Below, one piece after another: positions 1,157 to 64,000 of a stretch of DNA of 64,000 bases (positions within the stretch are counted from its first letter, which is position 1; each line of letters starts with the position of its first letter). Under the pieces are notes generated by a model. The model made no database searches, was not told the DNA's origin, and saw nothing but the letters and a program-made list of their open reading frames with translations. The stretch is from an uncultured Thermoguttaceae bacterium (lineage in GTDB: Bacteria; Planctomycetota; Planctomycetia; Pirellulales; Thermoguttaceae). The DNA lies in NCBI GenBank assembly GCA_938042245.1, contig CALIRO010000040.1:62001-126000 (forward strand), read 5' to 3'. A program made the position numbers and the translations under genes.

Positions 1157-1476
1157 CTCGGCCTCTCTCAACGCTTGCCATCTTCAGCGGGAGCTGTCAA
1201 AATAGGGGACGCTTTCCCCTATCTTCCCGGTTTACCCCCTCCAAAGATTCTTTCCCCTTTGAGTGATTGGCTGGAAAACTTTTGTTTTGCTTTTGGTAAC
1301 ATGTCAGCCGAATGATCCAACCTGTCCTTGCAGCGAAAGCAGGAATGCCGTTTTGATGGATCTCTGCTGGCGGGATTCGCGATTCCGGCACAGGGAACCT
1401 CGGAGGTATTCTCCCTAAAAAAGAAGAACCTACTTCACTCAGTTACAATGTTCCCTGTTTTGTAAGGAGAGAGGCC

Positions 1477-31091: not shown

Positions 31092-32117
31092 TTAACCTCG
31101 GCCTTCGAACTTTGGCATGGCCGGAGGCGGTATTTCTCGAAGGAGGCGCTGGATAATGTCTTCCGGGCTGATGCCTTCGGCCTGAGCTTGGAAATTGGTG
31201 CTGATGCGATGGCGGAGGACGGGGATAGCTATTTTTTGTACATCTTGGATTGCCACGGAAAACCGGCCGTCCATCGCCGCCAGGGCTTTGCCGCCCAGAA
31301 TCAAAAATTGCCCTGCCCGAGGCCCAGCCCCCCAATCCACCCACTCCTTAATATAACTGGGTGCCGAGGGGTCCGATGGCCGGGTCGCCCGCACCAGCCG
31401 CGCTACATACTGCACAATATACGGACTCACCGCCACCGAAGCCACCAACTTCTGCAGGTTCAAAATCGCCTTGCCCGATAGGACCTTGTGCACCTCCACC
31501 TTTTCGCTCCGGGTGGTAACGGCCAAAATCTGCTCCTCTTCCTCGGCCGAGGGATAATCGACCTTAATATTGAACATAAACCGGTCCAGTTGGGCTTCCG
31601 GCAACGGATAGGTCCCCTCTTGTTCGATCGGGTTTTGGGTGGCAATGGTAAAGAAAGGCTCCGGCAACGGATAGGTCTTCTGCCCAACAGTTACTTCCCG
31701 TTCCTGCATCGCCTGCAAAAGGGCTGCCTGGGTCTTGGGGGGAGTCCGGTTGATTTCGTCCGCTAGCAGGATATTGGTAAAGACCGGTCCGGGAACAAAC
31801 CGGAAGTTCCGCCGCCCGTGTTCGTCTTCCTCCAGCACATTGGTGCCGGTAATGTCCGAAGGCATCAAATCGGGCGTAAACTGAATCCGCTTAAAATCCA
31901 GATCCAGGATCCGGGCCAAGGTGCTAACCATCAACGTCTTGGCCAACCCAGGCACCCCGACCAACAGACAATGACCGCGGACAAAAATGGCCGCAAAAAT
32001 CTGTTCGATCACTTCCGTTTGGCCTACAATGACCTTTTGGAGTTCCTCCTGCATACGCTGGCGCTGTTGCCGGAACTCCTGGAGGACTTCTCCGAGACTA
32101 CGTGGCTTGGTGGACAA
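31092..32117 (-). CDS. MoxR-family AAA+ ATPase
   Basis: [76 protein letters not shown]. Confidence 0.96.
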
Positions 32118-32655
32118 GGCTCTTCCTTATGCTCCTAAAGGGGGGTAAAACCGGAGGAAACTCTCCCTCAACCAGATATCCAACCCACTTTTGGCCGGGA
32201 TAATATAACCCAAAGGTAGCAAACATGCCTGCCCCTTTGACATGGTTTCCCTTGATTCCATTATACCTTCGGTATGACCTGCTCCCAGAAGGTGTTTCAT
32301 CAACCCCATCGGACACGCCATATCGGATTAGAACACCCCCCCAAAAAAGGTGGAACAAGACCTAAGCTCACTTCTCCTTCCTTCCTCTGAGGTGAAGCTC
32401 CCGAGCCTTTTTCAGGATTTGGTGGCCTTTTTAGTGGGTTTTGCCTCAGATTTGATTTAAGGAACCTCAATAATTCAAAGGAGCTATTGTTCCACTATTT
32501 CGGAACCTCCGTTAATAGCCCCACATATAGTGGCACTGCCAACATGAGACTCCATATATAGTGCCTAGCAATGGGAACCAATGGGCAAAGGAATGTAGCA
32601 AATGTTCATAAAGTTCATGGGATATTCAGGATTTTGCAGAGCTTCCTTAAGAACT

Positions 32656-32816
32656 CTTCAGCCGACCGAAAGAACTTACCCGCAGGATCCGAGGAAAGCC
32701 TTTTGGCTCTCCCTGCCGGGCAAGCGGCAGTCCAGAACAAATAAACCTAGCCAAAAAAACCAGATTTCGGGTTTCGGAGGAATGAGGAATGCTGTGGTAC
32801 AACCATTCGGCTGAAG
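32656..32816. repeat. Dispersed MITE-like non-coding element, copy 1
   Basis: CTTCAGCCGA…TTCGGCTGAAG termini; shares GATCCGAGGAAAGCCTT and GCAGTCCAGAACAAAT with 63425-63574. Confidence 0.75.
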
Positions 32817-32881
32817 TGGTAGCAATTATAAACTTATGATAGAACTCCATTAACCCTAACAACAATTAGGGACAAAAGGCA

Positions 32882-35284
32882 ATGGGTAGGAATCTTAGGA
32901 ATTTAGGGCGGCGGAAGTGGGTGTGGTATTGGATATGGGGAGTAGGGGAGGCGGCATGCTATTTTTGGGGGGCTATCGAATCCTCTGGACAGGGGATTAC
33001 CCCAGAAATGGTTCGGGAAGCCATTCAACGAGGAGTTAATTACCTGAAAAATGTGCAAAATCCGGACGGTTCTTGGGGGGATTGGCCCCTCCAGCCGGGT
33101 GCCCGAACTTCTCTATGTACGCTGGCCCTGCTAAATGCGGGAGTTAAGACCACTGACCCGGCCATCCAAAAAGCCCTCGCCAATCTTCGAAAACTCCGGC
33201 CTGACTCCACCTATGCCGTGGCGTTGCAGACGATGGTCTTTTGCCAAGCGGAACCGGTGCGAGACCTCCCGCTGATCCGGGAGAATGTAGCTACCTTGCT
33301 CCGGATTCAAAAACAAGAAGGGCCTCGCAAAGGCGCTTGGGGTTATCGAGCCAGCTTAGGCGAAGGGGATAACTCGAACAGCCAGTTTGCCATTTTGGCC
33401 CTTTATGAAGCGGACCGGGTAGGGGTTCGGTTTCCAGAACGGAATTGGCGTCTGGCCAAAGCCTATTGGGAAGATTGCCAAAACCCAGATGGCTCCTGGG
33501 GTTATTATAAAGGGGTACCGGGTACAGGCAGCATGACCTGTGCCGGCATTGCCAGTCTGGTTATTTGTAATGAAATTTTGGGCCAGCCGAACGTGGTTTA
33601 TGATCCTACCACCGGCCGAATCAGTTGTTGCCAAGCTTCGGAGCCAGCTAGTGATGCGATCCAGCGTGGCCTTGCCTGGCTGAGTCGGCCCAGTGTCTTT
33701 GCGGTTAGCCATAATCCCGGTTCCCGGCAATGGCTCTTCTATTACCTTTACGGCCTGGAACGGGTGGGGCGGATGACCGGCCGACGCTTCTTCGGCCAAC
33801 ATGATTGGTATCGGGAAGGCTGCCATCAACTAGTCCTAGAGAATGGGCCGGATGCTCTGTCTGGATTCTGGCGGGGCACCGGACATGCCGAAAACGATCC
33901 GCAGATTGCCACCAGTTTGGCTTTGCTGTTTTTATCCAAAGGTCGTCGGCCCACCCTGCTGGCCAAACTGCAGTATCGCGCCGACCTGGATTGGAACCGG
34001 CATCCGAACGACGTGGCCAAACTGACCCGATATGTGGAACCCCGCTGGGGCTTGGATTTGACCTGGCAGATCGTGGATATCCGGGCCGCTTCCGTCGAAG
34101 ACCTGCTGCAATGTCCGGTGCTGTTTATGAGCGGCAACTTGGACCCCCGGCCTGAGTCGGACCAAGCTCTTCAAACGTTGGCTGACAAACTCCGGGCCTA
34201 CCTGGAACGGGGAGGCTTCCTTTGGGCCGAAGCCAATTGCACCGGTCAGGAATTCGACAACGGCTTCCGGGCCTTGGTAGAACGGATCTTCCCGGAAGCG
34301 GAATATCGGCTGCGTCTTTTGCCGCCCGAACATCCCATCTGGCGGGCTGAAGAATCAGTCGATCCGAAATATCATCGGCCGATTTTGGGGGTAGAATTCG
34401 GGTGCCGAACCAGCCTGATCTATTTTCCGCCGCATCCGGCCGACTCGCCTGGCCCTTCGCTTTCCTGCCTGTGGGAACTTTCGCAGCCTGCTGGTTCTGG
34501 GAGTTTCCCGGCCGCCGTGCAGCAGCAAATCGACGCCGCCCTTTCCATCGGAATTAATGTACTGGCCTATGCCACCAACCGGGAGCTAAAACCAAAGGAA
34601 TATTATTTGCGGCGGCCCATGCTGACAGGAAGTACAGATAGTTTGGTACGTGGACGTTTGGCCATTGCTAGCCTCCGACATCCCGGCGGTTGCACAGCAG
34701 CCCCCCGAGCACTCCGCAATCTCCTGGAAACCCTCCAGGACGAACTAAAACTGCGAGTACCCACCGATCCGGTGGAACTTGGCCTGACCGAGGAAGCCCT
34801 GTTCGACTATCATCTGCTGTTTATGCACGGCCGGAATGCCTTTCGTCTGACCCCCGCCGAACGGGACCAACTGAAAACCTTTCTGGAAAGGGGCGGCACC
34901 CTGTTTGCCAACGCCATCTGCGGCAGCCAAGCCTTTGCCGACTCCTTCCGACAGGAAATGGTGCAGATCTTCCCCAAAACACCGCTGGAACAGATCCCAC
35001 CGAATGACCCGATCTGGACGCCCGTTTTTGGCGGATTTGATCTGAAAATGGTTTCCCGTCGGGACCCGCAGCCGACTGCCCCGGGCGGCAAACTCCGAGC
35101 CGCTATCCGACAAGCCCCCCCTTCGTTCGAAGGGATCAAACTCAACGGCCGTTGGGCGGTCCTGTTTTCCCCCTATGATCTGAGTTGTGCCCTGGAAAAA
35201 CACGATTCTTTAGAATGCTATGGTTATACCCGAGACGATGCGGCGCGAATCGCGATCAACGTGATCCTCTACGCCCTCCATTAG
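32882..35284 (+). CDS. Terpene-cyclase-like repeat domain plus tandem DUF4159-like domains
   Basis: AIQRGVNYLKNVQNPDGSWGDWP and CQNPDGSWGYYKG cyclase-type repeats; two C-terminal modules, each with LxxxLERGGxLxANA/EANC motifs (YLERGGFLWAEANC, FLERGGTLFANAIC). Confidence 0.85.
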   Translation: MGRNLRNLGRRKWVWYWIWGVGEAACYFWGAIESSGQGITPEMVREAIQRGVNYLKNVQNPDGSWGDWPLQPGARTSLCTLALLNAGVKTTDPAIQKALANLRKLRPDSTYAVALQTMVFCQAEPVRDLPLIRENVATLLRIQKQEGPRKGAWGYRASLGEGDNSNSQFAILALYEADRVGVRFPERNWRLAKAYWEDCQNPDGSWGYYKGVPGTGSMTCAGIASLVICNEILGQPNVVYDPTTGRISCCQASEPASDAIQRGLAWLSRPSVFAVSHNPGSRQWLFYYLYGLERVGRMTGRRFFGQHDWYREGCHQLVLENGPDALSGFWRGTGHAENDPQIATSLALLFLSKGRRPTLLAKLQYRADLDWNRHPNDVAKLTRYVEPRWGLDLTWQIVDIRAASVEDLLQCPVLFMSGNLDPRPESDQALQTLADKLRAYLERGGFLWAEANCTGQEFDNGFRALVERIFPEAEYRLRLLPPEHPIWRAEESVDPKYHRPILGVEFGCRTSLIYFPPHPADSPGPSLSCLWELSQPAGSGSFPAAVQQQIDAALSIGINVLAYATNRELKPKEYYLRRPMLTGSTDSLVRGRLAIASLRHPGGCTAAPRALRNLLETLQDELKLRVPTDPVELGLTEEALFDYHLLFMHGRNAFRLTPAERDQLKTFLERGGTLFANAICGSQAFADSFRQEMVQIFPKTPLEQIPPNDPIWTPVFGGFDLKMVSRRDPQPTAPGGKLRAAIRQAPPSFEGIKLNGRWAVLFSPYDLSCALEKHDSLECYGYTRDDAARIAINVILYALH

Positions 35285-58882: not shown

Positions 58883-59040
58883 AGCCGATGCAGAATCCTT
58901 TAATAAGTTGCCAGTTTCCTATTCTCCCTCAGCCCATCCTAATGAACCAACTTGGCTCTGCGGAACCCTTTTCTAGGGGAAGCTAATGTACTCGCGTACC
59001 ATTTCTGCCTACTGAAGCAGGTTCCTGTTTTTTAGAACGA

Positions 59041-59153
59041 ATACCCCCCGCGTATCACTGCCGCGGAACCGGCAGTCCAAAAAGCAGAAACCCCTCGAAA
59101 AGACAGGATTCCTACTTTCGCAGCAGCAACAGGTTGCATCCCTCGGCTGAACT
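59041..59153. repeat. Partial copy of the dispersed MITE-like element
   Basis: ACTGCCG-C-GGAA-C-CGGCAGT hairpin 59057-59076, CAGTCCAAAAAG, ATTCCTACTTTCGCAGCAGCAACAGGTTG, CTCGGCTGA. Confidence 0.55.
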
Positions 59154-59586
59154 GATACAAGTCACTAAAACCTCCAAAAACACCTTTTATTTATTGACCC
59201 ACATCTCTATAATCCCACAGAGCCTTTCCACAGAGCCAACCAGGTCCTAAAAATTTTCTGTTTACTATGGTTGTTTAAGGTCTCTGTTCATTTTGCCAAC
59301 CGGGGCACCCAACGTACTTCCGGTGGGAAAATTCCGAATCTTCGTGAATTCCGATTTTTCGTAAGGATGACAAAACAATCCCTTCCGAGGAAATGGTCGA
59401 CCAGGATGCCATTTGATTTGGCCCAGCTTACCCAACCGGGCTATGGGCTGGCCTCATCCCCGCCAAGCACTGTCGGTCCCACCGGACCACCCCGATTGAG
59501 AGCCTCTACCAAAACCACCTTTGCTGACCCTTTCCGCCTAGGAAAAGGGCTAGGGGGAGCTTTTGGGGTTGGTTTGTTGGTAGTCC

Positions 59587-63424: not shown

Positions 63425-63574
63425 CTTCAGCCGATTGAAAAACTGCCCCGATTGATCCGAGGAAAGCCTTCCGGGCTGCCCGCCACGCAAGCAGCAGTCC
63501 AGAACAAATCCACTACCACAAAAAACCAGCTGCCTGCTTTCGCAAGAATGCCCTGGTACACCCTTCGGCCGAAG
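63425..63574. repeat. Dispersed MITE-like non-coding element, copy 2
   Basis: CTTCAGCCGA…TTCGGCCGAAG termini and long identical blocks shared with 32656-32816. Confidence 0.75.
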
Positions 63575-64000
63575 TCTTGTGATTTTCTAAGTGTACTCTT
63601 CTTATCTCTTTCTTACAAGCTAACTAAATTAAAAAAACTTCCCCTCCCTGGCAGATAAACCAGGATTCAAAAAACTTATTATTACCTATAAGGCAACTGT
63701 TTTCAAGGCCTGGGGGCAGAAATCCCTTCTCAGAAGCTTCCCTGTTTATTTTTCTCAAATTTACCTATTTTCTCTATATTCCCAAATTGGCTCTTGTAGA
63801 GTCTATTTGCCCCCGAAAAGGTTATTTTTCCCCACATCTTATTATTTTATTCTTTCGAATGGGCGAATCCCTTTTTCCTCGTTTGGGCTTGATGGTTTAG
63901 GCTCTGTTGAAAGAGGCTTTCTCGATTTGGAAATGTTGTCCATAAGAAAAAGTGTAACACCTCAGGCAAATGAAAAGCAGCCCACATGCAAGAAAATCTT

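What the first reader, a model, noticed from the sequence alone, without database searches (positions are those of the whole stretch)
32656..32816. Dispersed ~150-160 bp MITE-like element with terminal inverted repeats (copy beside the DUF4159 gene)
This segment starts CTTCAGCCGA and ends TTCGGCTGAAG. It shares with 63425-63574 the 17-mer GATCCGAGGAAAGCCTT, the 16-mer GCAGTCCAGAACAAAT, an A-rich centre (AAAAAACCAG) and a matching right end (TGGTACAnCC-TTCGGC). The layout is TIR, hairpin 1, A-rich spacer, inverted hairpin 2, TIR, as in a BIME or non-autonomous MITE. No transposase or RAYT gene is in the window, so mobilisation would be in trans.
Basis: partly seen in the sequence, partly recalled or inferred. 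Interest (0 to 1): 0.62.

Follow-up and report, generated by a model that had tools for sequence, protein, structure and literature searches.

The report
IS66-type MITE, hundreds of decaying copies
The 170-base segment is one worn copy of a small parasitic DNA element present hundreds of times in this planctomycete genome; it was most likely spread by the enzyme of a larger jumping gene of the IS66 family, of which only a broken remnant was found here.

Summary
The 162-bp consensus begins and ends with a 19-bp terminal inverted repeat (GTAACACTTCAGCCGAATG) and has exactly 8-bp target-site duplications (47 copies, z=9). The founder folded into a strong multi-stem hairpin (z=-8), but the copies decay independently on both sides of each stem, with no covariation: the hairpin is inherited, not maintained. 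Copies sit mostly between genes. The same TIR, with different interiors, is amplified in two sister species and in another family of the order, where 11 of 15 elements examined have perfect 8-bp duplications. IS66-family (PF03050) transposase genes in a sister species and other Pirellulales carry nearly the same ends; the host has only a broken IS66 remnant and no RAYT-type transposase. It is therefore a MITE of IS66 type (nearest the ISBst12 group), not a BIME/REPIN. The flagged copy's own duplication has decayed beyond recognition. New family, known kind.

The parts
32650..32822 (+). MITE copy under study (173 bp; TIRs partly decayed: AGAACTCTTCAGCCGACCG ... CATTCGGCTGAAGTGGTAG)
   Evidence: Profile match 125.9 bits, 83% identical to the consensus
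32650..32668 (+). left terminal inverted repeat, decayed
   Evidence: alignment to the consensus TIR GTAACACTTCAGCCGAATG
32804..32822 (-). right terminal inverted repeat, decayed at its outermost bases
   Evidence: alignment to the consensus TIR
   Evidence: 133.9 bits, 81% identical to the consensus
58996..59158 (+). third, more divergent MITE copy (162 bp class, TIR GTACCATTTCTGCCTACTG / CCCTCGGCTGAACTGATAC)
   Evidence: 52.4 bits, 68% identical to the consensus
1296..1432 (-). partial MITE copy, one TIR retained
   Evidence: 28.7 bits for profile positions 44-162
63954..64000 (+). left end of an interrupted MITE copy that continues beyond the window
   Evidence: TIR GTAACACCTCAGGCAAATG and partial profile matches at C40_2001:123954-124146

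Best explanation
[quoted passage not shown] A founder of about 162 bp, with 19-bp terminal inverted repeats and no gene, was recognised at its ends by the DDE transposase of an IS66-family insertion sequence (closest to the single-gene ISBst12 group). That transposase inserted copies, each time duplicating 8 bp of target, mostly into gaps between genes. The amplification was largely lineage-specific. The transposase gene is now lost or broken in this genome and most copies are decaying without sign of selection. Shown here: copy number, TIR, 8-bp duplications, lack of covariation, matching ends on IS66 transposase genes in relatives, and a degraded IS66 remnant in the host. Inferred: that the IS66 enzyme moved them, and that the family is now immobile in this genome.
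For: (1) 65 copies in 829 kb, 0 in control; 206 TIR matches within 2 mismatches genome-wide, 0 for the reversed-pattern control. (2) Flanks of 47 full copies match best at k=8, flush with the TIR: 4.30/8 against 2.54 shuffled, z=8.95; 12 of 47 have at least 7/8 against 0.4 expected. (3) TIR intactness correlates with duplication intactness, rho 0.41, p=0.004. (4) Same TIR with another interior in G035, where 11 of 15 elements have perfect 8-bp duplications. (5) Sister species G001 has a PF03050 transposase (E=6e-26) whose gene begins about 100 bp inside GTAACATTTTAGCCGAATGCAGT, 18/19 like a MITE TIR variant, with the matching right end on another contig. (6) Elements in G125 (1541 bp, intact frame) and G262 (1677 bp, two stop codons) carry GTAACACTTCAGCC- and GTAAYATATCAGCC-type TIRs on both sides of an IS66 transposase gene. 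(7) The own genome holds an IS66 remnant at C11:30112-30528. (8) Published: IS66 gives 8-bp direct repeats (PMC11946415); ISDge4 of the ISBst12 group has TIRs GTGACTACTCAGCA / GTAACTGCTCAGCA and an 8-bp direct repeat (PMC12898284).
Against: The three autonomous-type elements with both ends present (G125, G262, G088) show no recognisable 8-bp duplication (2-3 of 8), and the G001 element is split over two contigs. G002 and G035, which carry many copies, have no match to P0001 at E<=0.001, and G000, G002 and G035 have none to PF03050, so the mobilising enzyme in those genomes is not shown. MITE and IS share only the TIR; no interior was traced to an IS. The flagged copy itself has no recognisable duplication (3/8).
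Confidence: 0.85

Rival explanations
1. The MITE is real but was mobilised by a transposase of another family that makes 8-bp duplications; the match to IS66 ends would be convergence or incidental.
For: No PF03050 match in G000, G002 or G035, all rich in copies; no autonomous element with matching ends and a clear duplication was found.
Against: Several diverged IS66 transposase genes of the order lie inside 14-19-bp near-identical TIRs; GTAA ends with 8-bp duplications are the published IS66 pattern; a decayed IS66 remnant lies in the own genome. Other transposase families were not surveyed.
Confidence: 0.1
2. A RAYT/REPIN-type palindromic repeat (BIME), moved by an IS200/IS605-like tyrosine enzyme.
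For: Hairpin layout and intergenic location resemble BIMEs.
Against: No Y1_Tnp in G000, G001 or G002; 19-bp TIRs with 8-bp target duplications, which that enzyme class does not make (established knowledge).
Confidence: 0.02
3. The copies are kept because they act as structured RNA or DNA (regulator, terminator, mRNA stabiliser) beside genes.
For: The consensus folds far better than shuffles (-74.3 kcal/mol, z=-8.05), and 60 of 65 copies lie between called genes.
Against: On 23 copies, 73.9% of cells pair against 73.3% when partners are shuffled, and paired changes are no more frequent than in shuffles; no conserved fold by RNAalifold; no Rfam match; gene configuration around copies is close to background; no copy was found upstream of the DUF4159 orthologues in the sister species. 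Individual copies could still have been co-opted.
Confidence: 0.03

Closest known systems
IS66 family insertion sequences, ISBst12 group (e.g. ISDge4 of Deinococcus geothermalis, PMC12898284)
   Same: Terminal pattern GTAAC...TCAGC, 8-bp target duplication; related elements in the order have one transposase gene between such ends.
   Different: The element here is about 162 bp without any gene and shares only the TIR with the transposase-bearing elements.
Bacterial MITEs with an identified parent IS, e.g. MITECca01 (IS982; PMC9769881) and MITEPsy1 (probably from ISPsy2; PMC3189936)
   Same: Short, gene-free, TIR-bounded, mobilised or presumed mobilised in trans by the enzyme of an IS with the same TIR.
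   Different: Other IS families; here about 360 copies (extrapolated), older, and without an intact parent found in the genome.
REP/BIME/REPIN with RAYT
   Same: Palindromic, intergenic, numerous.
   Different: No RAYT-type gene in the genus genomes searched; 19-bp TIRs and 8-bp target duplications.

Membership tests
MITE (non-autonomous transposable element) | short (<300 bp), no coding capacity, terminal inverted repeats | tested here: met
   162-bp consensus, 19 of 20 terminal bases complementary
MITE (non-autonomous transposable element) | dispersed high copy number | tested here: met
   65 per 829 kb; 206 TIR matches genome-wide
MITE (non-autonomous transposable element) | target-site duplication of fixed length at the ends | tested here: met
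   8 bp, z=8.95 in G000; 11 of 15 perfect in G035. Not recognisable for the flagged copy itself.
IS66-type MITE | TIR shared with an IS66-family element | tested here: met
   G001, G125, G262, G195 transposase genes beside near-identical TIRs
IS66-type MITE | 8-bp duplication, as IS66 | tested here: met
   MITE copies; published for IS66 (PMC11946415, PMC12898284). Not seen on the autonomous-type elements found here.
IS66-type MITE | intact IS66 transposase in the present host to act in trans (needed for current mobility, not for origin) | tested here: not met
   Only a degraded remnant in G000 (C11:30112-30528); the assembly is 93% complete
IS66-type MITE | transposase acts on the MITE ends | not testable with these tools
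   needs a transposition or binding assay
BIME/REPIN (RAYT) | RAYT (Y1_Tnp) gene in the genome | tested here: not met
   none in G000, G001, G002
BIME/REPIN (RAYT) | no target-site duplication | tested here: not met
   8-bp duplications

The most novel reading that the evidence does not exclude
Across the Pirellulales one IS66/ISBst12-type end sequence has launched several unrelated structured MITE families, each re-invented and amplified into tens or hundreds of copies in its own lineage, in genomes where no intact transposase with that end was found. MITE interiors would thus turn over while the TIR stays fixed.
Probability: 0.45. Interest if true: 0.45.

Novelty: new member of a known kind. 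Interest (0 to 1): 0.32.

Why it matters
It puts a repeat family of about 1% of this genome (extrapolated) into a known class, with its likely mobilising enzyme family. A few searches of the open full-text library showed no MITE assigned to IS66 and none described from Planctomycetes, though subscription papers and ISfinder could not be searched. The young family in G035 (Pirellulales bacterium IP29b_bin.16) would be a good substrate for testing IS66/ISBst12 transposition in trans. The rapid turnover of interiors under a fixed TIR is of interest to students of mobile DNA. Otherwise ordinary.

Tried and rejected
Rfam: no match to the element. RNAalifold on 23 copies: no conserved fold; the consensus structure counted on the same copies shows no covariation. 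PF03050 in the own genome: none. Long TIR pairs in the 829-kb sample as autonomous elements: the few pairs 500-5600 bp apart largely coincide with ends of neighbouring MITEs; none was shown to hold a transposase. A 1365-bp TIR pair in G035 (L127): two MITE ends around an ordinary phosphoesterase-like gene, not an IS. IS66 in G005 and G007 (L147, L152): perfect TIRs but different sequences (GTAAACATTCGCC, GTAACAGTTTAGTC). P0002 in family f7: no further complete autonomous copies. Empty-site comparison upstream of DUF4159 in G001/G002: intergenic sequence too diverged to align, only absence of the copy can be stated.

Full report
What was checked. A search of the window's own assembly (G000, 4.65 Mb, 103 contigs, 93% complete) with the first segment gave 40 scored places out of 191 candidates; the second copy scores E=1.4e-19. 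Thirty copies were aligned after turning the minus-strand ones; their consensus is about 162 bp: GTAACACTTCAGCCGAATGAAGAAGCTGCCTGGTTGATCCGAGGAAAGCCTTTGGGTGTCCCTGCCGCGCAAGCGGCAGTCCAGAACAAATAAACTAGCACAAAAAACTGGATTCCTGCTTTCGCAGGAATGCCTTGGTACACCATTCGGCTGAAGTGTTAC.

Copy number. A profile of 29 copies searched against 829 kb of the genome (contigs C2, C11, C45 whole, most of C40, part of C20) gives 65 hits at E<1e-3 and none in an order-3 Markov control. Scaled by length this is about 360 copies, an extrapolation; a few hits are fragments of one interrupted copy. The TIR alone (up to 2 mismatches) occurs 206 times genome-wide, against 0 for the reversed pattern. Against a simple ORF caller 60 of the 65 hits lie between genes, where about a fifth of the sequence lies; the mix of convergent, divergent and co-directional gaps is near background.

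Target duplications. For 47 full-length copies the flanks were compared at all lengths 4-13 and offsets -3 to +3. The best signal is exactly 8 bp, exactly flush with GTAAC...GTTAC: 4.30 matches of 8 against 2.54 when flanks are shuffled between copies, z=8.95. Twelve copies have 7 or 8 of 8, against 0.4 expected. Copies with better-kept TIRs have better-kept duplications (rho 0.41, p=0.004), as expected from ageing; profile score alone does not correlate (rho -0.15, p=0.32). The flagged copy has 3 of 8, i.e. no recognisable duplication.

Structure. The consensus folds into a long terminal stem with internal hairpins, -74.3 kcal/mol, z=-8.05. On 23 copies this structure is neither found by RNAalifold nor supported by paired changes: 73.9% of cells pair against 73.3% with partners shuffled, 17 pairs with two-sided changes against 17.8. 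The founder was palindromic; the copies have since mutated without regard to pairing. This speaks against a maintained RNA role for the family. Rfam has no match in six copies' loci apart from tRNA genes.

Relatives. The TIR is abundant in the two other genomes of the genus (306 and 221 matches) and in one genome of another family of the same order, G035 (64), with few or none in 36 others. In G035 the elements are 176-306 bp with a quite different interior, and 11 of 15 have identical 8-bp flanks (at most 5 in 10,000 shuffles): a younger family. The G000 interior is 86-91% like its consensus in the best G000 copies but only about 67-75% in full-length matches of the sister species, and essentially absent elsewhere (one partial match in G009). 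A tree of copies puts the window copies 32650 and 63419 in a bushy, mainly G000 clade (labels REL_L299, L302, L305, L308, L311 and L314 there are G000 loci).

The mobilising enzyme. 8-bp duplications and GTAA ends suggested IS66. G000 has no PF03050 match. G001, same genus, has an IS66 transposase (P0001; PF03050 E=6.4e-26) whose gene starts about 100 bp inside GTAACATTTTAGCCGAATGCAGT; the contig ends inside the gene, and another contig carries the gene's end followed by ACTGCAAACGGCTAAAATATTAC. Homologues in G125 (1541 bp, frame open) and G262 (1677 bp, two stops) are bounded on both sides by GTAACACTTCAGCC- and GTAAYATATCAGCC-type TIRs; G195, G153 and G103 show one such end. None of the complete ones shows a clear duplication. 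In G000 a shifted, broken IS66 gene lies at C11:30112-30528 with a MITE-type end beside it. Published IS66 data fit: 8-bp direct repeats (PMC11946415) and, for ISDge4 of the ISBst12 group, TIRs GTGACTACTCAGCA / GTAACTGCTCAGCA with an 8-bp repeat (PMC12898284). RAYT-type Y1 transposases are absent from the three genus genomes; G035 has some, not examined further.

Surroundings. The copy lies between a MoxR-type ATPase gene (31092-32117, minus) and a DUF4159 protein gene (32882-35284, plus). No copy was found in the stretch fetched upstream of the DUF4159 orthologues in G001 (about 0.5 kb) or G002 (about 1.5 kb), so nothing suggests that this copy is a conserved part of that locus.

Verdict. A MITE of IS66 type (nearest ISBst12), mostly decaying in this genome. 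New family, known kind. Not shown: that an IS66 enzyme moves it, and that no intact enzyme remains in the missing 7% of the assembly. Transposase families other than IS66 and Y1 were not surveyed.

Noticed in passing
L290 (G002 C239), upstream of the DUF4159 orthologue: A short sequence aaaatggcaaaagtcgagctaaa appears in close succession, with a near copy (aaaaatggcaaaagtcgaactaa) at the far end of the same locus; possibly another small repeat family.
   Followed up: no
L127 (G035 C270:1500-6500): Two MITE ends in opposite orientation 1365 bp apart enclose a phosphoesterase-like gene; could in principle move as a unit, but the flanks do not show a clear 8-bp duplication.
   Followed up: partly
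window 63320-64600 (continuing past the window): Three MITE copies, one of them interrupted, lie within about 1.2 kb beside a cluster of four tRNA genes on the minus strand.
   Followed up: no
L046 (G000 C11:30112-30528): Degraded IS66 transposase gene with frameshifts and a MITE-type end at its edge.
   Followed up: partly
L200, L210, L212, L228, L245, L256, L261 (VGYV01 records, M_DeepCast_400m_m2_195): Elements of exactly 151 bp with perfect TIR pairs in another Planctomycetota MAG: apparently a further, very uniform and so probably young MITE family with the same TIR.
   Followed up: no
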